From: a virus
DNA length: 64,000 bases
Direction: 5' to 3' (one strand)
Virus record (IMG/VR): IMGVR_UViG_3300027742_000001
Coordinates: 27,914-91,913 of that record
Made by a program: the position numbers and the translations under genes. Shown piece by piece: positions 7,523-54,988 of this stretch (position 1 is its first letter; every line of letters starts with the position of its first letter). The notes under the pieces were generated by a model. The model was given only the letters and a program-made list of their open reading frames with translations, was not told the origin of the DNA and ran no database searches.

Positions 7523-7523
7523 A

Positions 7524-14965: not shown

Positions 14966-14977
14966 ATTAAGCCTTAA

Positions 14978-15463: not shown

Positions 15464-15487
15464 TAGGAATTCCTTATAAAGTAGCTC

Positions 15488-15700
15488 TTACTCAGAAGGT
15501 TCAACATAATCTAATCCTTTAACATCAATATCCCAATATATTAAGTCAAACTCTCCTGCTGGATTAGGTGTATCAGAAATACAAGTACAAGCACTCCCAT
15601 TAAATAAAACCACTTCAGGGGTATAGTATCTTTTACCTGAATCACATCTACCTTTTATTGTACAATCTTTTCTTGCTCTAACATGATTTGCATAAGACAT
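15488..15700 (-). CDS. Small Cys-rich protein of the tail fibre region
   Basis: 70 residues with four cysteines (CTIKGRC...CTC). It sits between the fibre-assembly-like protein and the response regulator with a TAA-ATG spacing of a few bases. Possibly a small virion or chaperone-like protein. Unknown. Confidence 0.6.
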   Translation of the reverse strand: MSYANHVRARKDCTIKGRCDSGKRYYTPEVVLFNGSACTCISDTPNPAGEFDLIYWDIDVKGLDYVEPSE

Positions 15701-15703
15701 TTA

Positions 15704-16252: not shown

Positions 16253-16261
16253 TTTATCTCC

Positions 16262-17132: not shown

Positions 17133-20100
17133 CTAATTATTAATATACCCTTTTAATCGTATATCTACTAAACCTTCTACTTCACTACCTAAATCATCAA
17201 AACATTTTAAAGTAGCACTTGTATTGGTTTTACTTATTACTTCTACTCGTGTAGCTGTACTTCCTATAAAACTTTGTAGAGTTGCTACTACATTTTTTAA
17301 ATTAGTTATATACTTAGTGTTTATGGTAGTACCTCCTATTAAGATATTTATATCCTCTAAACTTTCATCAATATCTTCTACATCTACAATAATTTTTAAT
17401 GCAGTTATACTTGGTCTAACTGTTCCCTCAATATAACTAACTCTAACTTCATATTGTCTAGTATATTGAACAGGGAAACCTCCTGTATATAAATTCCAAC
17501 CACTTTCTTCATACATCATATCTGAATCTGAACCATAAAAATTAAATACATCATTAGTATACATTGATAAAGGATAATACTCTCGATACTCTATTTTTTG
17601 ACTTGCTGTACCTGAATACTCTATTAAAGCTGTTCCACTTCCATCAGGTATAAAAGAACCAATATAATACATAGGCTCAAATAATCCTTGATAAAAGTTC
17701 TCTCCATTATTTTTATCATAAAAAATATCTGAATCTAAATTATAATAAAAATATGCTGTTGAAGCTTCTGCTAATAAATCATTATTTGGTTGAACAACCC
17801 CTCCATAGATTTCTCCAATAAAACCTTCAGCATGATAATCTTTTTCATAAATAAGATTATCAATAAGAGTTTCTCCTTGGTTAAACTTAATATATTTTAC
17901 ATTTAAACTTTCATTTCCATATACATCAACAGCTTTTATAAGTAAGTTATACTGACCTTGAACTTTTGTAATATCGGCTTTATAAGGTGAGGTTTTAAGT
18001 ATTCCTTCATGTATTTTAGTAGCAGTATTCCAATTTAAAGAATCCCCTACTTGATATTTAATAATATAACCACTTAAGTCAGGTGGCTTATTAATAATAT
18101 CAAATACTAAAGTTTTAACCTCATTAGGTCTTCCACTAATTGTAAATATATCTACATCAGGAGGTAAAATATCATTGCCACTAACTGTATAACTTTGTTC
18201 AATAAAGTTACTTGGATTACCTATTTCTTGAATAAATATTCTATACCTATTTTCAATAAGTCCTGTATTTTCTGATATATAAGAACTCCCTTTTACATTT
18301 TTTCCTAAGTAAATTCTATTATCAGGAATATTAGGTAAAGGAGTTTCATCTTCACTAACAAAATCAGGGATAGCATAGATATTATAGGTACTTGTAGTAA
18401 TTGCTGTCCAAGTAAATGTTAAAGTAATATTTGGGATACCAGCACTTGAAATATTCACATCTTCTGATATATTAAAAGTAAGCAACTCATTTGCAACTTC
18501 TAAAGAAGGAGTTATTGAGGTAATTAAATCATTATTATAATTAAAGTCTAAAATACTTGGGTTATAATCTGTTCCAGTAAACTTTGTACTTAATTCTTTT
18601 CCAGTTCTTTTTACTTCAGTTAATCTTACTAAAAGAGCTTCATTATTATTCTCTCCAAAGATATAACTATTATAAACTTCTATATCAGAAGTATTAGGTA
18701 AAGGTATTGTATAAGTATCTGTTAAATCAGTATCCTCAATATAATAATCTGTAAAAGTATTATCTTGACTTTGTATCTTTAAAACATATACCTTATCAGA
18801 AGTTAAAGTAACAGGTTCTTCTAAAGTAACTTCTGAAGTATCTACTTCTTGAATTCTACCACCATTACCCCATAAAGGAACATCATTTTGAATAGCAACT
18901 ATATCACCTACTTCACAAGTAACTCCTTTAATATCACTTTCCCAAGTGACTGTTCTTCTTTGGTACTTTGTAGTAGCTAACATATATCTACCAAATACAA
19001 TAGCTTCTGCTTTAGTAGTAATACCAACAGCATCTACTGTTGAGGTTTTAGGTGTAACTTTAGTATCATTTAAATCTTTATCAAGAATGGTTACAGCATT
19101 AAGTTCATTTCTAATATCTTCATCAGGATATTGTATTTCTAACTCAGTTGCTAAATCTGATAAAGGAGTATAGCTTATTTGGAAACTTTCTTTTTTAATA
19201 TCTCCAACATTAAACATATTTGTAATAGTTTGTATTCCATCAAAAACACATGTATACTTATTACCCCTAAGTAGTATTTGACCTCTACCTAACTTACCTA
19301 CCTTTTGACAAGCATCCCAAGGATTTGTTAGAGTATCAAAAGTTCCATTAAAGTTTAATTGTAAAGGATGTCCTAACTCTGTTAAGGTAATAAAATCTAT
19401 ACTAGCAAAATCTAATAAGAAATATATGTTAGTAATATTTGTGTCATTAAAATCTGAATTATAATCTTCAAAGGTGAATAAATAAAACTCTCCACCAACA
19501 TCTACACTATCAGTAATATCAATCAACCCATTATAAGAATATAATTCTCCATCATCCTTAGTTAGAGTAATTTGTGATAAACCTCTATTATATGTAGATA
19601 CTTCAATAGAAGTAATTTCTTGAATTATCTCAGATTTATAAACTTTTAATATATTCTCACTAGAATTATAAGTAAGTCTATCTGTACTAAAGGTCTCATC
19701 AGAACTGATAATAGTTTCTTCTCTTATATGTTCTAAATCACAGAAACTAGCCCATTCAACAAATCTATCATAATCAATTTGAGAAGGTTTTATTTTAGCC
19801 CCATAGAAAGGATTAGTTAAAATATCATAACATACCCATGCTGGGTTATTATTTCTCGCTGTTATACTTTCAGTATAAATATCATTAGTATATAATGTCA
19901 AATCTTTTCTAGTTACTTTTGTAGTAATAGTTGGTATAGAACCCTCAATATGCTCAGTTGCTTTTAATTTTAAACCTAACTGTGCGATACCTCCATAATT
20001 AATATCTGTTGTATTTATCTCCTCAATAAAGGAAACTTGCATAGTGGATTTAATATATATTGAACTAGGTATAGAACTCAATCTAGTGACTTTTACTTCA

Positions 20101-21515
20101 TATTGCCCTAATTGTAAGGTTTCGTTTGAAAATATAGAACTTACATTAGGCTCTATACTAAAACTTATTGCTGAAGTTGAATTTCCTGAGTAGCTTAAAA
20201 CTTCAGAATCCCCTATAAATATAGTTCTATAACTAATTCTATTTTCACTTTGTAACTCACCTTCAGTATATATAGGTTGATACTCACAGGTATCGTCTGT
20301 ACCACACATATTTGGAGTAGGGTTACTTATAGGAAAGGTGGAAGAATTATACTCTTTCCAATCTGTCCAATAAGAAATATATCTTGAGTTCCAATATGTA
20401 TCTGTTGCATCCCTCTCATATATAGGATAACTAACAAAAACACTATATTGTTTTTGATATTTAGGTTCTTTAATATAAGTCCACTCAGTTTCTCCAACTA
20501 ATCTATATCCTATACTATAATTTACTGAGTAAGTATTATAATTACCATTTGTAGTACTATAACTATAGAGACCATTTGGAAAAGAAAAATGTAATTTAAA
20601 GCTATCAATATTATCTGATTCAGTAGTAAATATATAAGGTTCATTATAATCTAAATTTCTGATAATATTCCCATTATTAAAAGTTGTATCATCAAATCCA
20701 TTCATAACTTCTTGTTCAAAAGTACCCCTAACTTGTTTAAAATATCCATCGCTTGTATCACTAATAAAACTATTATAAGGTTGCCCATTTACATAAATAT
20801 CAGCAGAATTTATTTCCTCAATTTCTCCGTAACATAAAGCTATTTGTAAAGATAACCAATCATCACTATTCTCATAATATTGTGATTTATTAATTTCTGT
20901 CCCACCTAGAACATGAGTACCATATAATACTGGTGTAGGTGAATTTACATCTCTATTAGTAGATATTCCGTCCCAAGAATATGTTTTAGAATCTGTCATA
21001 TTATTAGACATATTTGCATCAGCATTTGGGTCACTTGGTGCTAACATTCTACTTATTAGCATCATACCACCAACAACAACTGCAAAAGCTACTACATAAG
21101 CTAAAGCTATGGCAATAGCTGAGGTTGCGGCGAAATAAGATATAATAGCACTAGCAATATACCCTACTGCCTCCCACTCTTGGTAAGGAAAATAAACTAT
21201 AATATCTTTTTCTTGAACAATAATACTTTCTTGTTCTTCTTTTTCTTTAATAAGTTTACCATTATAAATAATACAATAATTAGTTTCATCATATTCACTT
21301 GTCTGAACATATTCTATTAAAGGTTTCCCATGTAAAGCTGTTCTTTTTTTATTTATACTTAGTTTAAATGGATTAGGAATTTCTGTTATAAAAACTGTAC
21401 CAAAAGAAACTTTGTTAATATTTAAGTTTTTAATACTTTCTTTATAAGTATCTCTTATTTCAACAAAAGCTATTGAAGAAGGTACTACTTGTTTAGCTTC
21501 TTTGTCTTTACTCAT
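17133..21515 (-). CDS. Tail tip / host specificity protein J-like
   Basis: 1460 residues, the size and position of lambda gpJ (after K- and L-like genes). A hydrophobic segment at about 120-158 (YIASAIISYFAATSAIAIALAYVVAFAVV) and then SWDGISTNRDVNSPTPVLYGTHVLGG match the J N-terminal region. Further on come fibronectin-III-like beta repeats, and the C-terminal part (after 1200) is a coil and beta tip. It forms the central tail fibre/baseplate hub and contacts the receptor. Confidence 0.85.
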   Translation of the reverse strand: MSKDKEAKQVVPSSIAFVEIRDTYKESIKNLNINKVSFGTVFITEIPNPFKLSINKKRTALHGKPLIEYVQTSEYDETNYCIIYNGKLIKEKEEQESIIVQEKDIIVYFPYQEWEAVGYIASAIISYFAATSAIAIALAYVVAFAVVVGGMMLISRMLAPSDPNADANMSNNMTDSKTYSWDGISTNRDVNSPTPVLYGTHVLGGTEINKSQYYENSDDWLSLQIALCYGEIEEINSADIYVNGQPYNSFISDTSDGYFKQVRGTFEQEVMNGFDDTTFNNGNIIRNLDYNEPYIFTTESDNIDSFKLHFSFPNGLYSYSTTNGNYNTYSVNYSIGYRLVGETEWTYIKEPKYQKQYSVFVSYPIYERDATDTYWNSRYISYWTDWKEYNSSTFPISNPTPNMCGTDDTCEYQPIYTEGELQSENRISYRTIFIGDSEVLSYSGNSTSAISFSIEPNVSSIFSNETLQLGQYEVKVTRLSSIPSSIYIKSTMQVSFIEEINTTDINYGGIAQLGLKLKATEHIEGSIPTITTKVTRKDLTLYTNDIYTESITARNNNPAWVCYDILTNPFYGAKIKPSQIDYDRFVEWASFCDLEHIREETIISSDETFSTDRLTYNSSENILKVYKSEIIQEITSIEVSTYNRGLSQITLTKDDGELYSYNGLIDITDSVDVGGEFYLFTFEDYNSDFNDTNITNIYFLLDFASIDFITLTELGHPLQLNFNGTFDTLTNPWDACQKVGKLGRGQILLRGNKYTCVFDGIQTITNMFNVGDIKKESFQISYTPLSDLATELEIQYPDEDIRNELNAVTILDKDLNDTKVTPKTSTVDAVGITTKAEAIVFGRYMLATTKYQRRTVTWESDIKGVTCEVGDIVAIQNDVPLWGNGGRIQEVDTSEVTLEEPVTLTSDKVYVLKIQSQDNTFTDYYIEDTDLTDTYTIPLPNTSDIEVYNSYIFGENNNEALLVRLTEVKRTGKELSTKFTGTDYNPSILDFNYNNDLITSITPSLEVANELLTFNISEDVNISSAGIPNITLTFTWTAITTSTYNIYAIPDFVSEDETPLPNIPDNRIYLGKNVKGSSYISENTGLIENRYRIFIQEIGNPSNFIEQSYTVSGNDILPPDVDIFTISGRPNEVKTLVFDIINKPPDLSGYIIKYQVGDSLNWNTATKIHEGILKTSPYKADITKVQGQYNLLIKAVDVYGNESLNVKYIKFNQGETLIDNLIYEKDYHAEGFIGEIYGGVVQPNNDLLAEASTAYFYYNLDSDIFYDKNNGENFYQGLFEPMYYIGSFIPDGSGTALIEYSGTASQKIEYREYYPLSMYTNDVFNFYGSDSDMMYEESGWNLYTGGFPVQYTRQYEVRVSYIEGTVRPSITALKIIVDVEDIDESLEDINILIGGTTINTKYITNLKNVVATLQSFIGSTATRVEVISKTNTSATLKCFDDLGSEVEGLVDIRLKGYINN

Positions 21516-23070: not shown

Positions 23071-26000
23071 TTAATATAAACTTCTTATTCTTGAATCTTC
23101 GTTTTTAGCTCTTAACATAATATTAATTACTTTTTCGTATTCATCATTTTCATTATTCTTAGTAAGCTCTTCAATCATATCTGCTTCAATAGGTGTTCCC
23201 GTACTATTTTCAATATTAATTGTTGTAGGGGTATTTACAATAGTTGCTCCTGTAACACCCATTTGAGGAACTGTTCCATTTTTATTAATATAATCAAGCA
23301 TTGGTCTTGTATCAGAATTAACGGAGTCTTTTTTAGTGAAATATTCTCCTCCCATTGCAAATACATGGGAGCCACTAGCAGAGCCTAAATATAAATCATC
23401 CCTAACACCTGAACCTCCACTAAGTATTCCTCCATTAGCAAATTTCTTAGTAGATAAAAATCCTCCATTTGCTTTAGCAGTTATTGGTAATTCTCCCCCC
23501 TCACTAAATCCAAATAAACTTCCTATTCCTGAAACAGCTTGTTTAACAATTAATGTTCTAATAAGTTCTTGGTAAATAGATTTAATAACACCTTTTGCTA
23601 GGGTTTCTAAATCCCCGAACCCCTCAGAAGTAACATCAAAGAAATCCATCATACCATTCTCTAATGATTGAAGTCCTACATTACCTACTTGTTCAAGGGC
23701 TTCATTTAAGGTAGGAACTTCTTTAGCATAATCTGTAAAGGCTTTATTTAATCCTTGATATGCTTTCTCTTGTGCTATAATATTTTCTAAAGCTTTTGTT
23801 TGATTTTGTTGTTCTTCTTCTGATAACTTTTGAAAGTCTTTTGAAGCTCTTAAATCTCTTAAAGCTTTCTCTGAAGCTAGTTCTTCTTTCTTCTTACCAA
23901 TTAATTCATCTACTCTTATTTGTTGAGTCTTTATTTTATTCTCAACTCTACCATAAGCTAAATCAATAGCATTTGCTTCTTTAGTTTGTGCTTTTTGGTA
24001 TTCATTTCCTAATTTTAATAATTTAGTTATTGCTAATTGTTTTGCTTCTTCTGAAACTAACTTAGCATAGTTTTCCCCTCTAACATTTAATTCTAATAAA
24101 AGTAAATCTGAGGTTTCTCTATTAAGAGAGTTTATCTTAGCTTGTTCAACAAGTTGTGTTATCATTTTATTTGTTTTAGAATCTTGTTGTTTAAGTTGTT
24201 TTTCTGTTTCTGAGGTTTGAGCTTTTTGTTTGGTTTCTATCTTCTCTTGTGATTTTAAGATAGAATTTTGAGCTTCATTTATTCTAGTTAATTGTTCAAA
24301 GGCTTTTGTATATGCGTTAACTTGTAAATCAATATTTAAAACCTCTTGTTTTGATTTACCTTCTTTACTTTGTTGTAACTTATAAATTTCTTCTTGAATT
24401 CTAATAGCCTCAGAAGATACATCCCCAAAGGTAGTAACTCCTGATAAATCTAATTTAATACCACTTGCTTCTAAGTCACTTTGAATTTTAGTTACAAATG
24501 TAGGTATCTCTTTTTGTATTCTATTAAGTCTATCTAAGTTTAAACCTTTTAGAATATCTAAGTCTTTACCTTTTGCTATATCAACACTTTTGTTTATTTT
24601 AGTTATAGAAGCATTTACATTGTCTAAATCTGCTGAACTAAAAAACTTTAAAGTATTTTTAAAAGGGATAGTTTCCAAATCCCCTAAACTACCTTTTAAA
24701 GATTTAATATTGTTTTCATAAGTTATTATTAGATTATTAATACTTTCCCATTGTTTAGAACCCTCTTTAATAGAATCACTATTTAGTAACTCTTTGTTCT
24801 TTTCAATAAGGGCTGTATAACTTTTTATCTGAGAATCAACTTGATTTTTGTTTAATGAACTTAGAATATTTGATTTATTCTTTGTTATATCTTGATTTAA
24901 AGTATTAGTTTTTTTAAGTAATTCATTAATTTTTGAAATACTAGCATAATCATTGTCATCTTTAGCTTGAGTCTTTAATGTATATAAAGTAGTTCTTATT
25001 AAGTCTAATCTATTAGTAACTTCTTCAAATTCCTTTGTATCACCTAATCCCTTTTTGAACTTATTAAAAGAAGTTGAGGTTGTATCAATAGCATTTGTAA
25101 GAGTACTTAATTGAACATCTTTACTAACAGCTACTCCAAAGAATTTAAACTCATCAACAGTATTATTCATAGCTCTTGCTAATTCTGTTGCTTTATCAAT
25201 GAAAGGGTCAAAAACACTTTGAGCAATACCTTTAGCATTTTCTCCAAATTTAGCCCATGTCTTTCTATAATCTTCTGTAATATTTTTAGCTTTATCTAGT
25301 TCCTCAGAAGTAACATTTAAACTTTCTCTTAAGTTTACTTGTATCTCACCAGCATTATTTTGAATAGCTTGTAAAACATTCTTTGTAAGAACTTCTACTC
25401 CACTTAATGCTTCATTATAACTTTCTCTATTAAAACTTTTTATTTTCTCTAAGAATTCTAATAAGGCTTTATTACTTTCTTCTCCACCTTGAGATATTCT
25501 TTTAGCTAAATTTGCTTGATTAACTCCAATAGTTTCAAAATACTTTTGAACAGCCCCACTATTACTACTTAAGGCTATTGTAAGTTTTCTAATTTGTGTA
25601 CCTATTGTTGATGCATTAAAGGATGCATTTGATAATGCACTTGCTAAACCATTTACAGCATCAATAGTTAATCCAGTAGCTTTTGCAGAGGCTAAGGCAA
25701 AGTTGGCAAAGGTATTAATATCTTGTGTACCTAATCTAGATTTATTTGCTAAGTATGCTAATTTAGCACCTAATTCATCAACACTTGATATAACTTGTCC
25801 AAATTGGTCTTTTCCAAATACTTGTACGAAAGAGATAATAGAACTAGCTGATTGCTCAATAGAATCCCCTGTCAATAATGCTAATTTAATAACTACCTCA
25901 GAAGCTTCTGCTACTTGTTCTAATGCTAAACCAGCTCTTGATAGTTCTAATGCAACTTTATTAATATCTCCGAGTTGTTCACCATAAGTTTTTCCTAGTT

Positions 26001-26832
26001 CAGCTAAATTACCTTCTAGTCTTTCGGCACTAGCTGAAGATATATCTAGAATAGTTTCTAATCTTTTTATTCCCGATTCATATTCTAAGGTATACTCTAT
26101 ACCAGCCCTCATTGATTGAGTAACTCCAGCAATAGTAGCAAATAAAGCAGTATATCCTAAACTTCTTCCTACAATTCCTTTTGCTAATCCACTTAAAGGA
26201 ATATCACTTAATTCAGCTTTTGTATCGGCTACTTGATTTTTTAATTGTTGATACTTGGCTTTTGCTGAGTCTATTGTTTTTAAATCAGATGATGTTAAGT
26301 TAACTATACCTTTTGAGCTTAGTGTTCCAATAATTTCTTGTTGTTTTCTAATCTCAGACATTTGAGAAGAAAGCTTACTTAATCCACTACTTGAACCAAT
26401 AGTTTTGTAATGACCTTGTAATGTTTGAGCTTCTCTATTTAGAGCATTAAATTTATCTTGTATTTTGCTAAGTTCAGTTGATTGTGATTGTAATCCCGTA
26501 GTAGTTTTTAAATTAAGACTATTTACATCTTTTACATATTGTTTTATTTGAGTATATTGTTTTACACTATTTGCTAGTTGTTCGTTATTCTTTATTGTTC
26601 CTGTTATATCACCACTTTTATACTTCGATATATCTGAACTAATTTGTTTTAGAATATTACTCTTTCTAATTAAATCTTCATAAACTCCACTTTCTTTACT
26701 TAATGAAGCTAATGTTTTCTCTGTTTCAGTAGTTAGTGAGGTTATGTTCTTTTCTAATTTAGTTAACCCACTTTGAATGTCATTAACATTAAGTTTTATT
26801 ATGGTTTCTATTACTTGTTCTTCACTTGGCAT
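23071..26832 (-). CDS. Tape measure protein
   Basis: 1253 residues, by far helical, with long coiled-coil stretches, a hydrophobic Gly/Ala segment near 220-240 (LAKGIVGRSLGYTALFATIAG) and a second near 1100-1120. The central TMP domain (ESGIKRLETILDISSASAERLEGNLAELGKTYG) is recognisable. The tape measure sets tail length; at about 1.5 angstrom per residue the tail would be about 190 nm (inference). Preceded by a special 236-bp gap with its own promoter. Confidence 0.9.
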   Translation of the reverse strand: MPSEEQVIETIIKLNVNDIQSGLTKLEKNITSLTTETEKTLASLSKESGVYEDLIRKSNILKQISSDISKYKSGDITGTIKNNEQLANSVKQYTQIKQYVKDVNSLNLKTTTGLQSQSTELSKIQDKFNALNREAQTLQGHYKTIGSSSGLSKLSSQMSEIRKQQEIIGTLSSKGIVNLTSSDLKTIDSAKAKYQQLKNQVADTKAELSDIPLSGLAKGIVGRSLGYTALFATIAGVTQSMRAGIEYTLEYESGIKRLETILDISSASAERLEGNLAELGKTYGEQLGDINKVALELSRAGLALEQVAEASEVVIKLALLTGDSIEQSASSIISFVQVFGKDQFGQVISSVDELGAKLAYLANKSRLGTQDINTFANFALASAKATGLTIDAVNGLASALSNASFNASTIGTQIRKLTIALSSNSGAVQKYFETIGVNQANLAKRISQGGEESNKALLEFLEKIKSFNRESYNEALSGVEVLTKNVLQAIQNNAGEIQVNLRESLNVTSEELDKAKNITEDYRKTWAKFGENAKGIAQSVFDPFIDKATELARAMNNTVDEFKFFGVAVSKDVQLSTLTNAIDTTSTSFNKFKKGLGDTKEFEEVTNRLDLIRTTLYTLKTQAKDDNDYASISKINELLKKTNTLNQDITKNKSNILSSLNKNQVDSQIKSYTALIEKNKELLNSDSIKEGSKQWESINNLIITYENNIKSLKGSLGDLETIPFKNTLKFFSSADLDNVNASITKINKSVDIAKGKDLDILKGLNLDRLNRIQKEIPTFVTKIQSDLEASGIKLDLSGVTTFGDVSSEAIRIQEEIYKLQQSKEGKSKQEVLNIDLQVNAYTKAFEQLTRINEAQNSILKSQEKIETKQKAQTSETEKQLKQQDSKTNKMITQLVEQAKINSLNRETSDLLLLELNVRGENYAKLVSEEAKQLAITKLLKLGNEYQKAQTKEANAIDLAYGRVENKIKTQQIRVDELIGKKKEELASEKALRDLRASKDFQKLSEEEQQNQTKALENIIAQEKAYQGLNKAFTDYAKEVPTLNEALEQVGNVGLQSLENGMMDFFDVTSEGFGDLETLAKGVIKSIYQELIRTLIVKQAVSGIGSLFGFSEGGELPITAKANGGFLSTKKFANGGILSGGSGVRDDLYLGSASGSHVFAMGGEYFTKKDSVNSDTRPMLDYINKNGTVPQMGVTGATIVNTPTTINIENSTGTPIEADMIEELTKNNENDEYEKVINIMLRAKNEDSRIRSLY

Positions 26833-40581: not shown

Positions 40582-41160
40582 TTACCTTTGTTGTAAATTA
40601 AGAAATAGATTTTGAATAGGAGCAGTAGAATCATCTTCTTCATCAGAATACATTTTAGCAAGTTTTTCTTGTACTTCAACCATACTTAGTTTTCCAAAGT
40701 ATTCTCTAAAAGCTAATTCATCTTTATCTTCTGCAAATAATTTTGCTAAGTATTTATTTTTTCTATCTAATGCTTCAGCAATTCCACCCATACCTTTAGC
40801 GATTACTTTTTGTTGTAATGTTTTAGTATACTTATCTAAAAAAGATGAAGAGTTACTATTTCTAAGTAAACTATTTATATAACCTTTTGAAACCTTATAC
40901 TGTTCAGCAATAACTTCTTCACTAGTTCCTAAACAATGTTGCTCTAAAATTAAATAATCAGTTTCAGTTAAAGGCTTACTATTAGTAGCATTTGCTGAAG
41001 TTAAATCTTTTAATTCTTCAACTGTGGAACTTGGTTTAGTTAAAACCATTTCTTTAGTTTCTGTATCTTCTTTTAAATCTTCTTGTTTCTTATTAGTAAG
41101 TTCAAGAAGTAAATCATCTGTTGTTTTTGTTGTTTTAATTTTTTGTGTATCTTTAGCCAT
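40582..41160 (-). CDS. Terminase small subunit
   Basis: 192 residues. The N-terminal 60 residues are low-complexity Lys/Thr/Glu; then LTETDYLILEQHCLGTSEEVIAEQYKVSKGYINSLLRN is a helix-turn-helix of the small terminase type, followed by helical oligomerisation parts. It ends four bases before the large subunit gene. First gene of the minus-strand late block. Confidence 0.75.
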   Translation of the reverse strand: MAKDTQKIKTTKTTDDLLLELTNKKQEDLKEDTETKEMVLTKPSSTVEELKDLTSANATNSKPLTETDYLILEQHCLGTSEEVIAEQYKVSKGYINSLLRNSNSSSFLDKYTKTLQQKVIAKGMGGIAEALDRKNKYLAKLFAEDKDELAFREYFGKLSMVEVQEKLAKMYSDEEDDSTAPIQNLFLNLQQR

Positions 41161-41223
41161 TTTATTCCTTTTTCCATATTTTTACGTAGGAGGTTATTTT
41201 ATTTATTTTTTAAAGGAGAACAA

Positions 41224-41334
41224 ATGAAATTATTAAATTTAAGTCAAAGAAACAAAACAGATAAAGATTCAAAAGGTTATTTGTTAACCCTCTCTACTTA
41301 TATATGGGATTTTTTTAGCATTTTTTTACCCTAA
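41224..41334 (+). CDS. Small hypothetical protein at the divergence point
   Basis: 36 residues from ATG 41224, with AAAGGAGAACAA before it: MKLLNLSQRNKTDKDSKGYLL... ends in the hydrophobic stretch LSTYIWDFFSIFLP. It lies between the divergent terminase and polymerase operons; coding is likely from the ribosome site, but unproven. Confidence 0.45.
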   Translation: MKLLNLSQRNKTDKDSKGYLLTLSTYIWDFFSIFLP

Positions 41335-41600
41335 GTTTTTATAAATTTTGAAATTTGTTTATTTTAGGGTTATTTTTTATTAAGTTTTCTTTAATTTTAA
41401 CCTAACTTTAAGGTATATTTTTGTACCATTTTGTCACGTAAGAATTTTGAAAAAGTTGGGCAGGGTTTTTTCTCCCATTTTATGGTAGCTAGAGTATACT
41501 TTTTTACCTAAAATCATTAAAAACCTACACAATATATGGTAAGGGGGTACCCTTCCTATTCTTCTTACTAATATCTTACAAACAAAAAGGAGGTAAAAGA
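41335..41600. other. Intergenic region between the late and replication blocks
   Basis: Contains an ACCCTAA/TTAGGGT inverted repeat (41328-41334 and 41364-41370), the 41397-41429 promoter, a second TATACT box at 41495-41500, and an AAGGG-ggta-CCCTT hairpin near 41540. Candidate place for a packaging site or origin: it lies upstream of the small terminase gene. No longer reading frame seen. Confidence 0.45.
41397..41429 (+). promoter_or_regulatory. Phage promoter, TTAACC class
   Basis: TTAACCTAACTTTAAGG starts at 41397 and TACCAT at 41424, spacing 27 nt. Heads the polymerase-like gene at 41601. The ACCT/AGGT dyad (7-nt spacer) is present. Confidence 0.68.
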
Positions 41601-43157
41601 ATGTTTAAAGAAGAGTTTAATTCTAATATAGATTTTAATAATCTTATTGCTACTGAAGAGTCTTTTCAATATGATATTAAAGAAACATATCCAGTATGTT
41701 ATCTAATAGATTTATATCTTAATAATAGTTTTAGTATTCATAAGAAAGAAACTAATCTAAGAAACAATAGAAATATAAATGGTTTTAATTTTGTTAGTAT
41801 TAAAGCAAGAACTATTGAAAATATATTAGGAAGAACTATTTTAACAAGATTAGATAAAGAGCATTTATTTTTTAAAGTATTTGAAGTAGATAATAACTAT
41901 AAGTTTTATAAAGATAATGTAAAAGAATCTGAAAGAGAAGAATCTTATACTAAAGCTTATAAACTTTCTACAATATTTATATGTAAAATGTTATTACATA
42001 AACTAACTTTAAGGAAAAGTATGATATACTCTTTTAACAAGTTTAAGATTAAAGAGCATTATTTGATAAAAGGTTTTAGCTTCAATAATCGTAATGAGAT
42101 ATTAAAATCAAAAATAATTACTAGAAAGGAGTTCGATTTGAATAAAGAAAAATATAAAGGTTATTATAATTCTATTGTTGCTAAGAAATATAATGAAGAA
42201 ACCTTTAGTCATGTAAATACTGAAACAACTAAAATAGATTATTTCCATGAGCCTAATATTGATACAGAATATGTTTTAAGTAAAGTTGAGGATATATCTG
42301 CTGAGGATATTAATAATTTAAGTGAATATCAAATGTTAGAATATGTCAGAATGACAATGAAAGCAAAGATTAATGATAGTGGTTCTAAAAGACAATTATA
42401 TACAAGACATGGAAGTGGGAGATTAATTGGAGTACAAATTCCTCACCAAAATGTTAATTTTCAAGTTTTACCTAAATGGGAAAGAGAAATCTTTTTTACG
42501 GGTAAATTTGAGTATGATATGTCTAATGCTGTAATTACTCTCTTTACAAATATTTTTGAGAAATTGGGTGGAAAAAGAGAGCTTAAAACCATTAAAGATT
42601 ATATGCTTGATAAAAATAAGTACAGAAACTATTTAGTTAAGTTAGGATTTAGTGAAAAACTTGCTAAACAATATTTTATTACAATACTTTATGGGAAAGA
42701 TTTAAGTAATAATATTCAGGAGAGCTATAAGAATACAGATTGGATGCAAGAAGTTAATGAAGAGTTATTTTATAAAGCACTTGAAAATGAAAATGTTGAG
42801 AATTTACTTAAAGAGTTAGATTACTTAAAAGATTTTTTAGTAAATCATTACAAAGAGGTTAGTTCTAAAGATGGTTTAAAATATATTATTAGAAATGCTA
42901 ATAATTGTTATAAATCTTTTACAAAGTTTGAAATGGAAAAAAATAAAGGAAAAGTATTAGCACATATATTCTTTGGAATGGAGAGTTTAATAATGGACTT
43001 TATTAAGAACAATTTTGAAACTAATTTATTGATTTATGATGGGTTTATATCTGAGGAAGATATTGATACTAAATATTTAGAGTTATTAATAGAACATGAG
43101 TTAGGTTATAAAATAAAATTTACAAAAAGAAAGATAGGAGGAATAAATGAAAATTAA
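41601..43157 (+). CDS. Divergent family-A-like DNA polymerase core, putative
   Basis: 518 residues. The C-terminal 260 residues show a set of motifs in the right order: GSGRL (271-275) as in the 'xGR' segment before motif A, motif A-like FEYDMSNA with Asp306, motif B-like AKQYFITILYG (Lys356, Phe359, Tyr364, Gly365), and motif C-like LLIYDGF with Asp480. This pattern fits the palm and fingers of T7/Pol I-type polymerases, but is diverged; a 3'-5' exonuclease motif is not visible. It is the first gene after a TTAACC promoter, at the head of the DNA metabolism block, where a replicative polymerase would be expected; alternatively it is a primase-polymerase or another nucleotidyltransferase. Confidence 0.5.
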   Translation: MFKEEFNSNIDFNNLIATEESFQYDIKETYPVCYLIDLYLNNSFSIHKKETNLRNNRNINGFNFVSIKARTIENILGRTILTRLDKEHLFFKVFEVDNNYKFYKDNVKESEREESYTKAYKLSTIFICKMLLHKLTLRKSMIYSFNKFKIKEHYLIKGFSFNNRNEILKSKIITRKEFDLNKEKYKGYYNSIVAKKYNEETFSHVNTETTKIDYFHEPNIDTEYVLSKVEDISAEDINNLSEYQMLEYVRMTMKAKINDSGSKRQLYTRHGSGRLIGVQIPHQNVNFQVLPKWEREIFFTGKFEYDMSNAVITLFTNIFEKLGGKRELKTIKDYMLDKNKYRNYLVKLGFSEKLAKQYFITILYGKDLSNNIQESYKNTDWMQEVNEELFYKALENENVENLLKELDYLKDFLVNHYKEVSSKDGLKYIIRNANNCYKSFTKFEMEKNKGKVLAHIFFGMESLIMDFIKNNFETNLLIYDGFISEEDIDTKYLELLIEHELGYKIKFTKRKIGGINEN

Positions 43158-45622: not shown

Positions 45623-46444
45623 TTGGATAAAATTAAAGAAGAAAATTATAAAAAACCTAAAGCTACTTTACTTCATGCTTCTCCATTAAGTATAGGAGAA
45701 ATTGCTGGAAGAATATGTTATGATAGTTTTAGTTTAAGTGAACATGAATTAGTAAGAAACTTTGAAGAAAATCCTAAAGAATTTATTAATAACTTATCTA
45801 CTTTAGGGGACATTGAAAGTTCAAAATTACTAGATAAACTTTTTAATGTTTATTTTCACGAAAGTGTTGCTGAACATATTAACTTAACTTATCATGTTGA
45901 GAGAGTTAGTAGAGAAATAATTATTGAATGGAATAGAACAAGAATAGGTATGCCTACAAGCCAAAAGTCAACAAGATATACCATTGAAGATTTAGTTAAT
46001 GCTTTTGTTGATTGGTATGATAATAGTAATGGGGCTATTGGAGAAGAACATTATAATGCTTTTGAAAAAGTTGTTGATGATAACATTGTACATAAAAATA
46101 ATACAAGAGTTACTATAACTACTAATTATTTATTAGATATGTTATCTACATACCATGAAGAAGAACCTCTTAAAAAAGGTTTAACAGGTGGGGCTAAAAA
46201 GAAACAAAATGATAGAGTTAAAAGATGTTTACCTGAGAGTTGGATGTTAGAAGGTATTTGGACATTTAACTTAAGGAGTCTAAAACACTTTGTAAATTTA
46301 AGAAGTAGTGGTTCTGCATATTATGGTATTAGAGAAGTTGTTGAAACAGTTATGGAGCAAACACCTCATAAGTATAGAATTCTTGTAGATAAAAAATATA
46401 AAGAATTACTATTAAAACAAAATAAAGGAGAAATTAATGAATAA
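45623..46444 (+). CDS. thyX: Flavin-dependent thymidylate synthase ThyX
   Basis: 273 residues from TTG behind AAGGAGG. HESVAEHINLTYHVERVSREIIIEWNR (79-105) and the signature RTRIGMPTSQKSTRY (105-119) match ThyX; the motif differs from the RHRxxS form (His to Thr, and one extra residue). The enzyme makes dTMP from dUMP with FAD, NADPH and methylene-tetrahydrofolate. Next to ribonucleotide reductase, it raises dTTP supply for phage DNA synthesis. Confidence 0.82.
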   Translation: MDKIKEENYKKPKATLLHASPLSIGEIAGRICYDSFSLSEHELVRNFEENPKEFINNLSTLGDIESSKLLDKLFNVYFHESVAEHINLTYHVERVSREIIIEWNRTRIGMPTSQKSTRYTIEDLVNAFVDWYDNSNGAIGEEHYNAFEKVVDDNIVHKNNTRVTITTNYLLDMLSTYHEEEPLKKGLTGGAKKKQNDRVKRCLPESWMLEGIWTFNLRSLKHFVNLRSSGSAYYGIREVVETVMEQTPHKYRILVDKKYKELLLKQNKGEINE

Positions 46445-46682
46445 AGAACAAAAGAAAATACATTCAAAAGAAATTGAGAATAGAAAAGCTAAACAAAAAG
46501 AACGAATAGGTAATTATTACATACAATATTCTAATAAAAGTGCTAACGGAGTTGAGTACACCAATATGGCTTCACTAGATACTTTTGGTAAACTTAGATT
46601 TAGAAGTATTGATAATCAAGGTTGGTTTTATTTAGTTAATCTTGCAAAGGATAAGTTAGTGAATGGTGTTGGTGGTATTTAA
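46437..46682 (+). CDS. Small hypothetical protein (81 aa)
   Basis: Overlaps thyX by 8 bp with AAAGGAGAAATTA. Basic helical start and a beta-type second half (GNYYIQYSNKSANG). Unknown. Confidence 0.62.
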   Translation: MNKEQKKIHSKEIENRKAKQKERIGNYYIQYSNKSANGVEYTNMASLDTFGKLRFRSIDNQGWFYLVNLAKDKLVNGVGGI

Positions 46683-47281
46683 TGGAAGATTTTGACTTAA
46701 ATACATATGTAGTTGAATCCTCTGAGAGTAATGTTTATAAATTTGATATAGATAAAGATTTTGAAAATCCTAGTCAAGTTAGGGATTTAACTAGATTATT
46801 AGATACTCAAACTGAATATGATACTACTATTCTTAGGGTAAATCATTGGGGTGGATGCAAATTCACGTTATTATCAGTAATGGATGCTATTCAGAATAGT
46901 AAAGGACAAGTTATTGCTCAAGTAATCCATGCTAGTAGTGCTGGTTCATTATTGAGTTTAGTTTGTGATGATTGTTTTACGGTTAAGTTTGGAGAATGGT
47001 ATATACACCAAGAGCAAAGTTATAATTTTGGAGATACTTCGTATCAAAAACAAAATATTGAATTTACAGATAAAACACAAAGACACTTATTTGAGGAAGT
47101 TTATAAAGGATTTTTAACGGATAAAGAGATAGATGATTTATGTAAAGGTACTATTAGAGATTTTACTTTTGATTATATAGAAGCTAATGAAAGATTAGTT
47201 AAATGGAGAGAGTATAGAGATTCTTTAGTTGAGAATGCTGAAGATACAAATGAACAAGAAATTGTTGAGAAAGGAGAGTAA
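46682..47281 (+). CDS. ClpP-like serine protease
   Basis: 199 residues. Features of the ClpP/crotonase-fold protease: HWGGCKFTLLSVMDAI (like the GG..AG.AIYDTM helix), HASSAGSLLSL with probable nucleophile Ser86, and EWYIHQEQS with His109, close to MIHQP of ClpP. The third acidic residue is not certain. It lies one base overlap behind the previous gene and directly before nrdA. Such phage proteases are usually head maturation proteases; here it sits in the nucleotide operon, so a regulatory or host-takeover role is possible. Confidence 0.75.
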   Translation: MEDFDLNTYVVESSESNVYKFDIDKDFENPSQVRDLTRLLDTQTEYDTTILRVNHWGGCKFTLLSVMDAIQNSKGQVIAQVIHASSAGSLLSLVCDDCFTVKFGEWYIHQEQSYNFGDTSYQKQNIEFTDKTQRHLFEEVYKGFLTDKEIDDLCKGTIRDFTFDYIEANERLVKWREYRDSLVENAEDTNEQEIVEKGE

Positions 47282-49057
47282 TTGGAAAGAGAATTGTTAG
47301 TTAATGATTTTGCTAAAGCTATGTTTGAAGATTCATACCTTTTACCAAATGAAACAATACACGACCTTTATCATAGGGTTGCTTATGATAATTGTAGAGA
47401 TAACCCTAAGAGGGCAGAGAGAATAAAAGACTATTTATATAAACAATGGGCTAGTGGAGCAACTCCTGTTTTATCTAACTCAGGTACAGATAGAGGCTAT
47501 CCTATATCCTGCTTTAAAAGTATTACAAATGATGATATGGGAAGTATTGCTTTTGGATTTATGGAAGATTTAGTTCTAGGCTCAGGAGGTGGAGGAATTG
47601 GTAGGATGAAAAATGTTAGAGGTGTAGGTAGACCTATTTTTAATGTTGGAAATTCTAGTGGTAAAATTCCTTTTTATAAGGTAGATGATGCTATGGTTAA
47701 TGCAGTATCACAAGGTGGGTTAAGGAGAGCAAGTAAAGCAGAATACTTACACATTTCAGATATAGAAATTGAAGAGTTTATTAAATTAAGAAAACCTACT
47801 GGAGGAGATACTAATAGAAAATGCTTTAATTTACATCAAGGAGTAGTTTTATCAGATGATTTTATGGAAGCAGTTATAAATAAAAAAGCATGGGGCTTAA
47901 AATCTGTGGATACTGAATCTGTTGAAAAGTATGTTGATGCTTATAAACTATTTACCGAAATTTTAACAATTAGAATTGAAACAGGTGAACCCTATATACT
48001 ATTTGAAGGAAATGTTAATAAAAATTTATGTGAATTATACCAAAAAGAAGGGTTAAGTGTTACTTTTAGTAACCTTTGTAGTGAGATTCTACTAAATGTT
48101 ACGGAAGATAAAACAGCAGTATGTTGTTTAAGTAGTGTTAATTTAGAGAAATATGATGAATGGAAAGATGATTCATTATTTATTGAAGATATGATGTACT
48201 TTTTAGACGGTGTTTTAATTCAATATGAAGAAAAGTTACAAAAAAGTCCCGAATGGAAAAAACCCTTCCTAAGAAGAGTTATCAACTTTGTTAGAGAAGA
48301 GAGAGCAGTTGGGTTAGGTGTAATGGGTTGGCACAGTTTATTACAATTAAAACATATTCCTTTTGAAAGCCCAATGGCTAAAGGTTTAAATATAAAAATA
48401 TTTAGTTCTTTAAAAGAGCAAGTAGATAAAGCAAGTATAAAAATAGCTAAAGAAAGAGGTTCTTGTGAGTTAGGTAAAAAACATGGTGTTCTTGAAAGAT
48501 TTACAAATAAAATGGCTATTGCTCCTACAAGTTCAATATCTATTCTATGTGGAGGAGTTAGTGCTGGAATAGAACCTTGGCAAAGTAATGCTTATGTTCA
48601 TAAAAATAAGACTAAAGCACATACAGTTAAGAATAAGTATTTAACTAAATTAATAGAAGATAAGGCTAAAGAATTAAATAAAGATGGTAGATGGATTCAA
48701 TCGCAATGGAAATCTATATTAGCCCATGAAGGTTCTGTTCAACATTTAGAGTGGCTAGATGATTTTAGTAAAGAAGTATTTAAGACTGCTTTTGAGATAG
48801 ACCAAAGATACATAATTGAACAAGTAGCAGATAGAACTCCATATATTGACCAAGGGCAAAGTACTAATATATTCTTACCCCATGATGTTAATAAGAAAGA
48901 CTTATTAGGTTTACATTTAATGGCTTGGAAATTAGGAGCAAAAACTCTATATTATTGTAGAAGTACAAGTCCTAAAAGAGCAACTGTGGGTGGTAATGTT
49001 GAAAGACATAAAATCGAAGAAGATACTAGGTATGATGAGTGCTTGGTTTGTCAGTAA
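47282..49057 (+). CDS. nrdA: Ribonucleotide reductase alpha subunit, class I
   Basis: 591 residues from a TTG start behind AAAGGAGAG. Conserved residues seen: Cys of YPISCFKS, SNLCSE (radical Cys and Glu), CCLSS, KTLYYC (Tyr pair of the radical path) and the C-terminal ECLVC thiol pair; APTSSISILCGGVSAGIEP is also diagnostic. About 170 residues shorter than the E. coli protein, without an N-terminal ATP-cone. It reduces ribonucleotides to deoxyribonucleotides with NrdB. Confidence 0.92.
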   Translation: MERELLVNDFAKAMFEDSYLLPNETIHDLYHRVAYDNCRDNPKRAERIKDYLYKQWASGATPVLSNSGTDRGYPISCFKSITNDDMGSIAFGFMEDLVLGSGGGGIGRMKNVRGVGRPIFNVGNSSGKIPFYKVDDAMVNAVSQGGLRRASKAEYLHISDIEIEEFIKLRKPTGGDTNRKCFNLHQGVVLSDDFMEAVINKKAWGLKSVDTESVEKYVDAYKLFTEILTIRIETGEPYILFEGNVNKNLCELYQKEGLSVTFSNLCSEILLNVTEDKTAVCCLSSVNLEKYDEWKDDSLFIEDMMYFLDGVLIQYEEKLQKSPEWKKPFLRRVINFVREERAVGLGVMGWHSLLQLKHIPFESPMAKGLNIKIFSSLKEQVDKASIKIAKERGSCELGKKHGVLERFTNKMAIAPTSSISILCGGVSAGIEPWQSNAYVHKNKTKAHTVKNKYLTKLIEDKAKELNKDGRWIQSQWKSILAHEGSVQHLEWLDDFSKEVFKTAFEIDQRYIIEQVADRTPYIDQGQSTNIFLPHDVNKKDLLGLHLMAWKLGAKTLYYCRSTSPKRATVGGNVERHKIEEDTRYDECLVCQ

Positions 49058-49066
49058 AGGAGAGAA

Positions 49067-50149
49067 ATGAAAAATAATTTATTAAAAGTTAAAGATGAAT
49101 ACAGTTATAAGCCTTTTATATACCCTGAGGCTTATAACTTCTACTCGGTACATGAAGATTTACATTGGACAAAGAAAGAAATTGATTTAAACCCTGATGT
49201 AAAAGATTGGAGTACAAAAGCAACCGATGTTGATAAGTTTCTTATTACTAATATACTTAGAACATTTACAACAAATGAGGTAGCTGTTGGTAGTGGTTAT
49301 GATGCTGAGTTAAGAATATTTAAACCTCAGGAAGTAAAAATGATGTTAAGATGCTTTGCTAATAGAGAGAACATCCACATTGATGCTTATGCTAACTTTA
49401 CTGATACAGTAGGGGAGTTTAATGAAGATACATTCTACAATGAGTGGAGAGAGTATGAATGTATGGAAGAAAAATTAGAATATATACACAAAGCTAGGGT
49501 TAAACACTTTTATCAATATATTGATGAAGTTAGGGAAACTTGTGGAGAGGATAATTTAACCGAAGAAGAGATTAGAGATAAAGCTAATTTTAGATTTAGA
49601 CAAGATGTGGCTAGAATGTTAGCTGTTTATGGAGGAGGTACTGAAGGAGTATTACTATTTAGTCAATTTGCTATTTTAATGAATTTCCAAAGACATGGTA
49701 TGTTCTCAGGACTCTCTACAACAGTTGATTGGTCAATTAGAGATGAAAATCAACATTGTGAGGGACATTCTTGGTTATTCAGAACCTTAATAAAAGAAAA
49801 CTATGATATATGGACAGATGAATTAAAATTTGATATTTATGAAGCTTTTAGAGAAATAGTAAGGCTAGAAGATAACTTTTTAGACTTTGCCTTTAGTTTA
49901 GGTGAAATAAAAGGACTAACTTTATCTGAAATGAAACAGTATATTAGATATATTGCAGATAGAAGATTACTTGAATTAGGTATGAAACCCAACTTTAAAG
50001 TTAAAGACAACCCATTACCTTGGATGGAGGAGATGATTAATGCAAGTTCTTTCAGTAATTTCTTTGATGTTAAAGTTACTGAGTACGGAAAAGGCACAAC
50101 TAAAGGTGATTGGGAAGAAGCAAGTTCAATATTAGAACAATTTAGGTAA
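49067..50149 (+). CDS. nrdB: Ribonucleotide reductase beta subunit, class I
   Basis: 360 residues, 9 bp after nrdA. Diiron ligands and the radical Tyr are visible: RENIHIDAYANF (E-x2-H, then Tyr 7 residues after Glu as in the E. coli Y122 position) and SIRDENQHCEGH (E-x2-H). It supplies the tyrosyl radical for NrdA. Confidence 0.92.
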   Translation: MKNNLLKVKDEYSYKPFIYPEAYNFYSVHEDLHWTKKEIDLNPDVKDWSTKATDVDKFLITNILRTFTTNEVAVGSGYDAELRIFKPQEVKMMLRCFANRENIHIDAYANFTDTVGEFNEDTFYNEWREYECMEEKLEYIHKARVKHFYQYIDEVRETCGEDNLTEEEIRDKANFRFRQDVARMLAVYGGGTEGVLLFSQFAILMNFQRHGMFSGLSTTVDWSIRDENQHCEGHSWLFRTLIKENYDIWTDELKFDIYEAFREIVRLEDNFLDFAFSLGEIKGLTLSEMKQYIRYIADRRLLELGMKPNFKVKDNPLPWMEEMINASSFSNFFDVKVTEYGKGTTKGDWEEASSILEQFR

Positions 50150-53521: not shown

Positions 53522-53563
53522 TTTAAAGATTATTTTACTTAGGTTTTACTATAAAGGAGATTG

Positions 53564-54988
53564 GTGAAAAAATACAAACATATTGATACTAATATATTAT
53601 TATTAGATAGTCAAAATTTAAAAATATTAGCTGAAGTTGATAATTCAGAAGATGATATTACTTTAGTTATTTCAGAAACTGTTATTGATGAGTTAGACTC
53701 TAAAAAGTCTTTATTATCCGAACTAGGATATAATGCAAGAGAGTTTGGAAGAACAATATCTAAAGCAGAAGTTATATCAACAAATGATTATGGTAGTTTC
53801 TCAGTTGTGAAGATAAACCTAAATGGTATTTCTATTGAGATAGTTTCAAAAAAAGAATATAAATTATGTAATTCAGAAAGTGGTTCTATAAGTAATGACT
53901 TAAAGATATTAGAAATTGTACAAGTTTATTCCGATACTTTTTTAGGACAACAGATATTTATATCTAATGATGTTATGGCTAGGATAAGAGCAACCTCGTT
54001 AGGGTTAGAGACTACTTCTTTAATTGAGGTAGATAATGTTGATTTAGATTTTTCAAAAGAATTAAAGGTTAGTTCAGATATTTTTTCTAAGATTAGAAAT
54101 AACTCAAATTTAACTATTTATGATATTGATAAAGATTATTGTACTAGAAATTATAATTATACTATTACTTGTGAGGAAACTAATCAACAAAAATTAATTA
54201 GTGTACTTCCTGAAGGTAAAATTGATTATATTTCAAAGGAAAAGGAAACAGATTTACGAAGACAAGAAGCTAGTCCTATTAATAAAGGTCAATTATTCTT
54301 TAGTAATGCTATTCAGAGTCAATTATATGATATAATAATTTGTGAAAGTTTAAGTGGTTCAGGTAAAACTGTAAGTGCTTTATCAAATGCTATGAAGCTT
54401 ATAAAAGCTAAAAAGTATGAATGTATCTATTATATTAGAAACAGTGTAGATGATGTTGATAAAGCCGAACAACAGGGTTTCAGAAAGGGCGGGGATTCTG
54501 AAAAAAATGGTATATTCTTTTTACCTTTAGATGATACCTTAGATTTTATTGCTAGAAAGAAACATAGTAATTCGAAATTAAAAGCAAATGAATTAGAAGA
54601 AAAAATTAATGCTGAAAAAGAGGATATGATGAAAAAATATAATATTATTCCTTTAACTGCATTAGGTTTAAGAGGTAGAACTTTAAGACCTAACTCTATT
54701 ATAATTTTTGAGGAAATTCAAAATGCTAGTTCTAGTTCTTTTCAAAAAATGTTAACAAGAGTTGGTAAAAACTCAATGATTATATGTATTGGTTCACAAA
54801 ATCAGATTGATAATCCTTATTTAACTAAATATAATAATGGATTAAGTATTTTATTAGACTCTTGTACTAAGAAAATGGAAACAGATATTAATTTATATGG
54901 AGTTACCTTACATAAAGTAGCTAGGTCTTCCGTTTCAGAGTTTGCTGAAAAACTTTTTACAAACAAATTACAACTAAAAGAGGGCTAA
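53564..54988 (+). CDS. PIN-PhoH fusion ATPase
   Basis: 474 residues. Start GTG 53564 preferred because AAAGGAGA leaves 4 nt of spacing; the TTG at 53561 is too close. Residues 1-150 form a PIN nuclease domain (HIDTNILLL with an acidic D, ISETVIDELDSKK). Residues 235-470 contain the PhoH ATPase: SLSGSGKT (Walker A), IIIFEEIQNAS (Walker B) and a final arginine region. PIN-PhoH fusions act as ATP-driven RNA nucleases or helicases; phage copies are common in marine genomes, and their role may be degrading host RNA. Confidence 0.85.
   Translation: MKKYKHIDTNILLLDSQNLKILAEVDNSEDDITLVISETVIDELDSKKSLLSELGYNAREFGRTISKAEVISTNDYGSFSVVKINLNGISIEIVSKKEYKLCNSESGSISNDLKILEIVQVYSDTFLGQQIFISNDVMARIRATSLGLETTSLIEVDNVDLDFSKELKVSSDIFSKIRNNSNLTIYDIDKDYCTRNYNYTITCEETNQQKLISVLPEGKIDYISKEKETDLRRQEASPINKGQLFFSNAIQSQLYDIIICESLSGSGKTVSALSNAMKLIKAKKYECIYYIRNSVDDVDKAEQQGFRKGGDSEKNGIFFLPLDDTLDFIARKKHSNSKLKANELEEKINAEKEDMMKKYNIIPLTALGLRGRTLRPNSIIIFEEIQNASSSSFQKMLTRVGKNSMIICIGSQNQIDNPYLTKYNNGLSILLDSCTKKMETDINLYGVTLHKVARSSVSEFAEKLFTNKLQLKEG

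What the first reader, a model, noticed from the sequence alone, without database searches (positions are those of the whole stretch)
41601..43157. Highly diverged family-A-like polymerase as possible replicase
Order and spacing of GSGRL, YDMSNA (D306), AKQYF...LYG (K356, Y364-G365) and LIYDGF (D480) fit motifs A, B and C of T7/Pol I-type polymerases, but motif C has YDG in place of HDE and no 3'-5' exonuclease is seen. No other polymerase, helicase or primase is visible in the window, so this may be the replicase, or a new primase-polymerase-like branch.
Basis: partly seen in the sequence, partly recalled or inferred. Interest (0 to 1): 0.68.

Follow-up and report, generated by a model that had tools for sequence, protein, structure and literature searches.

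The report
Extra phage polymerase, not the replicase
A phage that already carries a full set of copying enzymes has a second, very unusual small polymerase gene, which probably starts or patches DNA or RNA strands rather than copying the genome; similar spare polymerases have been described in other mobile elements, but this branch had no name or annotation in the databases searched.

Summary
The ORF is real (518 aa, P0002). A model built without the window's clade scores the window's domain 72.8 bits; the best of 3000 shuffles scores 13.6. The family profile matches ordinary phage PolA (hhalign 46.8, E 1.4e-5; best of 200 column shuffles 18.0) better than T7-type RNA polymerase (21.4). AlphaFold models are too weak to confirm the fold.

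It is not the replicase. The same 91,913-base record holds, outside the window, an ordinary PolA, a TOPRIM primase, a DnaB helicase and a 5'-3' exonuclease. The closest described kinds are TV-Pol (a relative in Microcystis phage Ma-LMM01) and the accessory phage divPolA2. It departs from PolA and TV-Pol: the Glu five residues after the first catalytic Asp, and the Arg of RxxxK, are absent in 8 of 8 members. A sister phage carries two copies, both apparently starting at AUA.

Most likely function: an accessory exonuclease-less prim-pol. RNA polymerase or lesion-bypass roles are not excluded.

The parts
41601..43157 (+). Whole gene: short exonuclease-less family-A-superfamily polymerase, 518 aa
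41601..42317 (+). N-terminal domain (residues 1-239), no recognised family; conserved along its length in both copies of the sister phage
   Evidence: alignment; no family hit above a cut-off
42318..43154 (+). Polymerase core (residues 240-518)
42417..42464 (+). GR..Q element (G273-R274 to Q288), aligned by hhalign with the GR..NLQ element of PolA
42516..42518 (+). Motif A catalytic Asp D306; residue +5 is V311 in place of PolA's Glu
42666..42695 (+). Motif B: K356 to Y364-G365 in the fingers; the Arg four residues before the Lys is replaced by E352
42981..42983 (+). E461, invariant in the family, in the element before motif C
43038..43043 (+). Motif C catalytic Asp D480 with G481
40582..41160 (-). 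Divergent neighbour, next to the large terminase gene; same order in the sister phage (synteny marker, taken as small terminase by position only)
41161..41600 (.). Divergent intergenic region; its first ~150 bases are conserved in the sister phage

Best explanation
The gene encodes an accessory, exonuclease-less, template-directed polymerase of the family A superfamily, in a phage that already has a full replisome. Inferred mechanism: the C-terminal core (residues 240-518) holds two metal ions through D306 and D480, contacts the template strand through R274, and grips the incoming nucleotide's phosphates with K356 alone, without the usual partner Arg. The residue that normally keeps ribonucleotides out is missing. 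The unrelated N-terminal domain (1-239) would take the place of thumb and exonuclease and hold single-stranded template or a partner. I think it most likely makes or extends short strands (a prim-pol), as predicted for TV-Pols and shown for the SCCmec polymerase CcPol with its partner MP. Shown here: homology, conserved catalytic residues, a separate replicase in the record. Inferred: catalytic activity, template, sugar choice, priming. My confidence by level: polymerase of this superfamily 0.9; accessory rather than main replicase 0.9; prim-pol as the main role about 0.4.
For: Clade-out HMM: 72.8 bits for the window core, 70.4 and 66.6 for the sister copies; best shuffle 13.6 of 3000. hhalign of the 8-row core with 6 phage PolAs: score 46.8, E 1.4e-5, aligned over GR..Q, motif A and motif B; 200 column shuffles at most 18.0, reversed 15.1; with 4 T7-type RNA polymerases 21.4. 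Separate PolA in 5 of the 6 phage records that carry a homologue (all but Desulfovibrio phage SRB7757). Own primase, DnaB and 5'-3' exonuclease. On Polaromonas plasmid pW9NP1 the homologue lies 10 bases upstream of repA on the same strand, and both Polaromonas plasmids carry a recombinase gene, which fits the TV-Pol contexts in PMC2579912 (whole text read). Only one place in Ma-LMM01 matches the family, gp30, beside two transposase genes, which fits that paper's Ma-LMM01 TV-Pol element. CcPol-MP primes DNA de novo (PMC7581432: abstract and passages). Glu at motif A +5 absent in 8 of 8, though invariant in the 6 PolAs.
Against: Both AlphaFold models are weak (mean pLDDT 48.9 and 42.7). Foldseek on the first gave no match at E <= 0.001; its best was Aquifex Pol I at E 0.057. 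A profile search of the PDB found no polymerase. With query and target swapped, hhalign falls to 32.1 (E 0.0019), and the window clade alone gives 29.9. Relatives were chosen by similarity, the first two by similarity to P0002 itself, so the family statistics are not fully independent. The phage already has a primase, so another primer maker is not obviously needed. No D5_N helicase domain in 8 of 8 records, though D5-type helicases are the usual TV-Pol partner. No conserved small downstream partner: the window's overlapping 70-aa ORF has no counterpart at the sister locus.
Confidence: 0.5

Rival explanations
1. It is a small RNA polymerase, a second lineage like T7 or N4 RNAP, that transcribes a set of phage genes.
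For: The DNA polymerase sugar-gate Glu is lost in 8 of 8. An acidic residue three positions after the Q/H of the element before motif C is present in this family (E461) and invariant in the 4 T7-type RNAPs (H384, D387), but is not part of the PolA consensus IQGxxAL. The gene opens a divergently oriented gene block. PMC11348598 section 13 raises the same possibility for divPolA2. Mitochondrial RNAPs appear lower in the Foldseek list.
Against: The profile is closer to PolA (46.8) than to T7-type RNAP (21.4). No word shared by upstream regions beyond chance: at most 3 of 41 regions, null also up to 3 (a crude test on a crude gene map). PF00940 found nothing in the own record, but that search rang in no control genome either, so it says little.
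Confidence: 0.2
2. It is a lesion-bypass or gap-filling DNA polymerase for repair or end processing, not for priming.
For: No exonuclease found; separate replicase; altered active site; stands next to packaging genes. PMC11348598 suggests repair for divPolA2.
Against: No repair gene among the neighbours I scanned. On pW9NP1 it sits directly before repA.
Confidence: 0.25
3. It keeps the fold but has lost or changed catalysis and acts as a DNA-binding, regulatory or untemplated transferase protein.
For: The Arg of RxxxK is absent in 8 of 8 and the residue after the motif C Asp varies (G, A or E) in the window clade.
Against: Both catalytic Asp and the fingers Lys are kept in 8 of 8 at 14-33% identity to the window's protein, hard to explain without catalysis.
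Confidence: 0.1
4. It is the phage's replicase.
For: Polymerase motifs present.
Against: An exo+pol PolA with primase, DnaB and 5'-3' exonuclease lies in the same record; the sister phage also has a PolA besides two copies of this gene.
Confidence: 0.03

Closest known systems
TV-Pol family (Iyer 2008, PMC2579912)
   Same: Short, exonuclease-less family-A core with the Arg, two Asp and fingers Lys; N-terminal extra domain in a subset; mobile elements; the window's family includes Ma-LMM01 gp30, very probably the TV-Pol named there.
   Different: Arg of RxxxK absent in 8 of 8; no D5_N helicase in 8 of 8 records; here inside a phage with a full replisome.
divPolA2 of barbaviruses and Vibrio phages (PMC11348598)
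   Same: Accessory to a regular DNA polymerase, no exonuclease, unrelated N-terminal domain, several copies per phage, variable neighbourhood. hhalign of A11 with AUR84708: 33.0 against at most 23.9 in 300 shuffles.
   Different: HMMER did not match it; only the GR..Q and motif A part aligns; the barbaviruses have PolB, this phage PolA.
CcPol-MP, PolA-SSB primases of SCCmec and Bacillota elements (PMC7581432, PMC10061031)
   Same: Family-A polymerase without working exonuclease in mobile elements, able to prime.
   Different: No SSB-like partner or Cch2-like helicase identified here; CcPol is annotated by NCBI as carrying a PolA domain according to the paper, P0002 has no Pfam polymerase match.
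T7-type single-subunit RNA polymerase
   Same: Same superfamily; no DNA-type sugar-gate Glu.
   Different: Weaker profile match (21.4, E 0.075); no promoter-like repeat found.

Membership tests
Family A polymerase superfamily | Arg of the beta-hairpin and two catalytic Asp | tested here: met
   D306 and D480 in 8 of 8. R274 8 of 8; 7 of 8 in the column, where the Vibrio phage's R lies one column off.
Family A polymerase superfamily | Lys and Gly of motif B (K..YG) | tested here: met
   K356 and G365 8 of 8; Y364 is Y or F in 7 of 8 and N in Ma-LMM01.
Family A polymerase superfamily | Profile similarity to known members | tested here: met
   hhalign 46.8, E 1.4e-5, shuffles at most 18.0; but no Pfam PF00476 match in the single protein and no polymerase in the PDB profile search.
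Family A polymerase superfamily | Palm fold | tested here: inconclusive
   pLDDT 48.9 and 42.7; Foldseek best is Pol I at E 0.057.
Replicative PolA (DNA_pol_A) | Motif A Glu five after the Asp and RxxxK Arg, both invariant in 6 phage PolAs | tested here: not met
   V311 and E352 here; absent in 8 of 8.
TV-Pol | Fingers RxxxK motif | tested here: not met
   K in 8 of 8, R in 0 of 8, Ma-LMM01 gp30 included. I therefore call it TV-Pol-like, not a TV-Pol.
TV-Pol | Arg hairpin, two Asp, no nuclease | tested here: met
TV-Pol | D5-like helicase fused or nearby (one subset) | tested here: not met
   PF08706 in 0 of 8 records; controls rang in 3 of 14.
TV-Pol | Two-helix coiled-coil thumb | tested here: inconclusive
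   Helix 242-260 before the hairpin in a low-confidence model.
divPolA2 | Accessory PolA-like protein beside a regular DNA polymerase, without exonuclease | tested here: met
divPolA2 | Sequence homology to divPolA2 | tested here: inconclusive
   hhalign 33.0, 0 of 300 shuffles reach it, over 46 columns only; HMMER no match.
CcPol-MP type PolA-SSB primase | OB-fold SSB partner in the operon | tested here: inconclusive
   Next small ORFs have no Pfam match; no partner conserved in the sister phage; no OB-fold prediction was run.
CcPol-MP type PolA-SSB primase | De novo DNA priming | not testable with these tools
   Needs biochemistry.
T7-type RNA polymerase | Profile similarity and phage promoters | tested here: not met
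   21.4, E 0.075; no repeated upstream word (crude).

The most novel reading that the evidence does not exclude
A separate branch of family-A-derived enzymes, spread over phages and small plasmids and bridging TV-Pol and divPolA2, has dropped both the DNA sugar gate and the Arg of RxxxK. It would start strands de novo with ribo- or deoxynucleotides as a third kind of primase, working beside an ordinary DnaG-type primase in the same phage.
Probability: 0.25. Interest if true: 0.62.

Novelty: new variant of a known kind. Interest (0 to 1): 0.42.

Why it matters
Phages that keep a second, unrecognised polymerase beside a full replisome pose an open question: what is the spare one for? This family is invisible to Pfam, PHROGs and NCBIfam as a polymerase, yet ties together proteins from phages of unknown, sulphate-reducing, cyanobacterial and Vibrio hosts and from glacier plasmids. 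If it primes, it adds to the short list of primases outside DnaG and AEP; its altered active site would show how sugar choice and phosphate binding can change in this fold.

Tried and rejected
Replicase: rejected. Defence protein: no PADLOC model matched 4 members. Known database family: none above a cut-off for P0002 (Pfam 5, PHROGs 6, NCBIfam 41, PDB 9). P0001 matches phrog_34692 at 1.1e-5, a family of unknown function that is Ma-LMM01 gp30 itself. D5_N partner: none. Phage-promoter repeat: none. Iterons in the divergent intergenic region: in the window only A/T-rich repeats.

Structure: two AlphaFold jobs, both weak (103, 133); the one Foldseek search is suggestive only (117). I did not search the second model.

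Only 52 (close relatives of Ma-LMM01 gp30), 53 (sister phage, found by terminase) and 67 (sister phage and one more contig) gave loci. Both genome-contig scans found nothing.

Rows dropped before counts: L007 (E. coli plasmid ORF, E 0.5; R in place of the motif B Gly) and L009 (near-copy of L005) are in A1 but not in A11. L031 and L029 are in A11 but not in A1. Both alignments have 8 rows, not the same 8. Of 16 Ma-LMM01-like loci, 12 were checked for stops and 2 used in A12. G001 and G002 carry the same second copy, so the 6 phage records are not 6 independent lineages.

I could not compare with CcPol or Sputnik V13 sequences: I had no route to them in the collections offered, and I did not write them from memory. 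The roles of Pol I E710, R754, K758 and of T7 RNAP residues, used in the reading of the active site, are recalled, not from a call.

Full report
OBSERVATION. The window is bases 27,914-91,913 of a 91,913-base IMG/VR virus record. ORF 41601..43157 (+) encodes 518 aa. The protein alone matches nothing above a cut-off in Pfam, PHROGs, NCBIfam or the PDB, and tblastn at E 0.01 finds nothing in 50,697 phage records.

FAMILY. With looser limits the whole protein hits a Polaromonas plasmid ORF (pH8NP1, 23% identity over residues 211-508, E 3e-4), and its C-terminal part hits a Desulfovibrio phage ORF (E 0.01). From the plasmid protein, tblastn reaches a second Polaromonas plasmid (pW9NP1, E 7e-58), Microcystis phages including Ma-LMM01 gp30 (E 6e-5) and Vibrio phage GR11A (E 2e-3). 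A scan with the window's large terminase found a sister phage (IMGVR_UViG_3300035544_000079, terminase 90% identical). It carries two full-length homologues (E 7.4e-50 and 6.0e-31): one in the same place beside the terminase genes, one elsewhere. Alignments of 8 rows keep Q288, D306, K356, G365, E461 and D480 in 8 of 8. R274 is 8 of 8 and 7 of 8, where one Arg lies a column off.

CHANCE CONTROLS. An HMM of the five members outside the window's clade scores the window core 72.8 bits, the two sister copies 70.4 and 66.6, and the best of 3000 shuffled sequences 13.6. Each of the 8 left out in turn scores 24.5 to 166.7 bits, against a best shuffle of 5.0-9.9 in these runs. Caveat: the first two distant members were found by their similarity to P0002; Ma-LMM01, GR11A and pW9NP1 were found through the plasmid protein instead.

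SUPERFAMILY. 200 column shuffles reach at most 18.0, reversed alignments 14.5-15.1; four T7-type RNA polymerases give 21.4. Against: the swapped direction gives 32.1 (E 0.0019) and the window clade alone 29.9. Two AlphaFold models are poor (pLDDT 48.9 and 42.7). Foldseek on the first puts Aquifex Pol I first at E 0.057, with three other Pol I structures at ranks 3-5, none significant. The PDB profile search returned no polymerase.

NOT THE REPLICASE. In the same record, outside the window: PolA at 17962-20850 (PF00476 E 2.3e-25; ORF), a TOPRIM primase at 6694-7638 (Toprim_2 E 3.9e-9; PHROG DNA primase E 3.5e-20), a DnaB-like helicase at 14888-16312 (PHROG E 3.1e-21) and a 5'-3' exonuclease at 25387-26319 (E 7.6e-16). 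Of the 6 phage records with a homologue, 5 also have PolA; Desulfovibrio phage SRB7757 has none by this search.

ACTIVE SITE. The 6 PolAs share an invariant Glu five residues after the motif A Asp (D139, E144) and an invariant Arg four before the fingers Lys (R208, K212). In this family the Glu position reads V, A, V, H, H, V, H, Q and the Arg position E, Y, Y, P, I, V, V, V: neither is kept in 8 of 8. From general knowledge the Glu is the gate against ribonucleotides and the Arg/Lys pair binds the phosphates; so altered sugar choice is an inference, not a result. After the motif C Asp the window clade has G, A or E; the other five have HDG.

CONTEXT. The gene opens a (+) block facing the terminase genes; the sister phage keeps this order, with the same small gene and the same 326/278-aa gene behind it. 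On plasmid pW9NP1 the homologue ends 10 bases before repA on the same strand, and both Polaromonas plasmids carry a recombinase gene. The second sister copy overlaps by 4 bases a downstream gene that has an HNH-like stretch (Pfam HNH E 0.081, below cut-off). Both sister copies lack ATG, GTG or TTG at the conserved N-terminus, but each has a GGAG(G)-type ribosome site 5 bases before an in-frame ATA.

COMPARISON WITH WHAT IS KNOWN. Iyer 2008 (PMC2579912, whole text) defined TV-Pols, predicted them to be prim-pols, and counted Microcystis phage Ma-LMM01 among them, with the element integrated in that phage. gp30 is the only match to our family in that genome and lies beside two transposases, so it is very probably that protein; the paper's figure and supplement were not seen. 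Bebel 2020 (PMC7581432, abstract and passages) showed that a TV-Pol, CcPol, makes DNA primers with its partner MP. Rice 2023 (PMC10061031, part 1 of 5: abstract and introduction) widened this to PolA-SSB pairs. PMC11348598 (section 13 and passages) describes divPolA2: an accessory, exonuclease-less PolA with an unknown N-terminal domain and up to three copies per phage. Its example AUR84708 aligns with our profile (33.0; at most 23.9 in 300 shuffles) over the GR..Q and motif A part, though HMMER does not see it. With the PolA profile it scores only 21.1. So the window protein may bridge TV-Pol and divPolA2. Because RxxxK is a stated TV-Pol feature and fails here, I call it TV-Pol-like. The Polaromonas plasmid paper (PMC6015842, passages) does not mention a polymerase on these two plasmids in the passages seen.

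VERDICT. An accessory, TV-Pol-like, exonuclease-less polymerase; prim-pol most likely, repair and RNA polymerase next. A new variant of a known kind, of moderate interest. Statements that it is undescribed rest on the family searches named above and on paper searches only.

Noticed in passing
L028:2986-2988 (-), L027:3073-3075 (-): Both copies of the gene in the sister phage appear to start at AUA after a good ribosome site, while the window copy starts at ATG. Rare starts in both copies might mean translational control.
   Followed up: partly
window 41161-41320: First ~150 bases of the terminase/polymerase intergenic region are strongly conserved with the sister phage, unlike the rest; regulatory, small-ORF or packaging element unknown.
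   Followed up: no
L029:9518-10681: Gene with an HNH-like stretch overlaps the end of the second sister polymerase copy by 4 bases; a polymerase-endonuclease pair could be a mobile unit.
   Followed up: partly
L010-L024, codon 12 of the annotated gp30 frame: In 10 of 12 checked relatives of Ma-LMM01 gp30 a TGA stands at codon 12, so the annotated start of gp30 is probably too far upstream.
   Followed up: partly
window 53561-54988: PIN-PhoH fusion protein (PF13638 and PF02562).
   Followed up: no
window 45623-50149: Thymidylate synthase-like, ATP-dependent protease-like, and ribonucleotide reductase large and small subunit genes in a row.
   Followed up: no
L007:3632-4777: E. coli plasmid pF16EC0470-1 ORF in a region with an AlpA-type regulator, weakly similar to the family (E 0.5; GGR, D, K, E and HDG aligned); also phrog_15971 DNA polymerase I at E 0.074.
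   Followed up: partly
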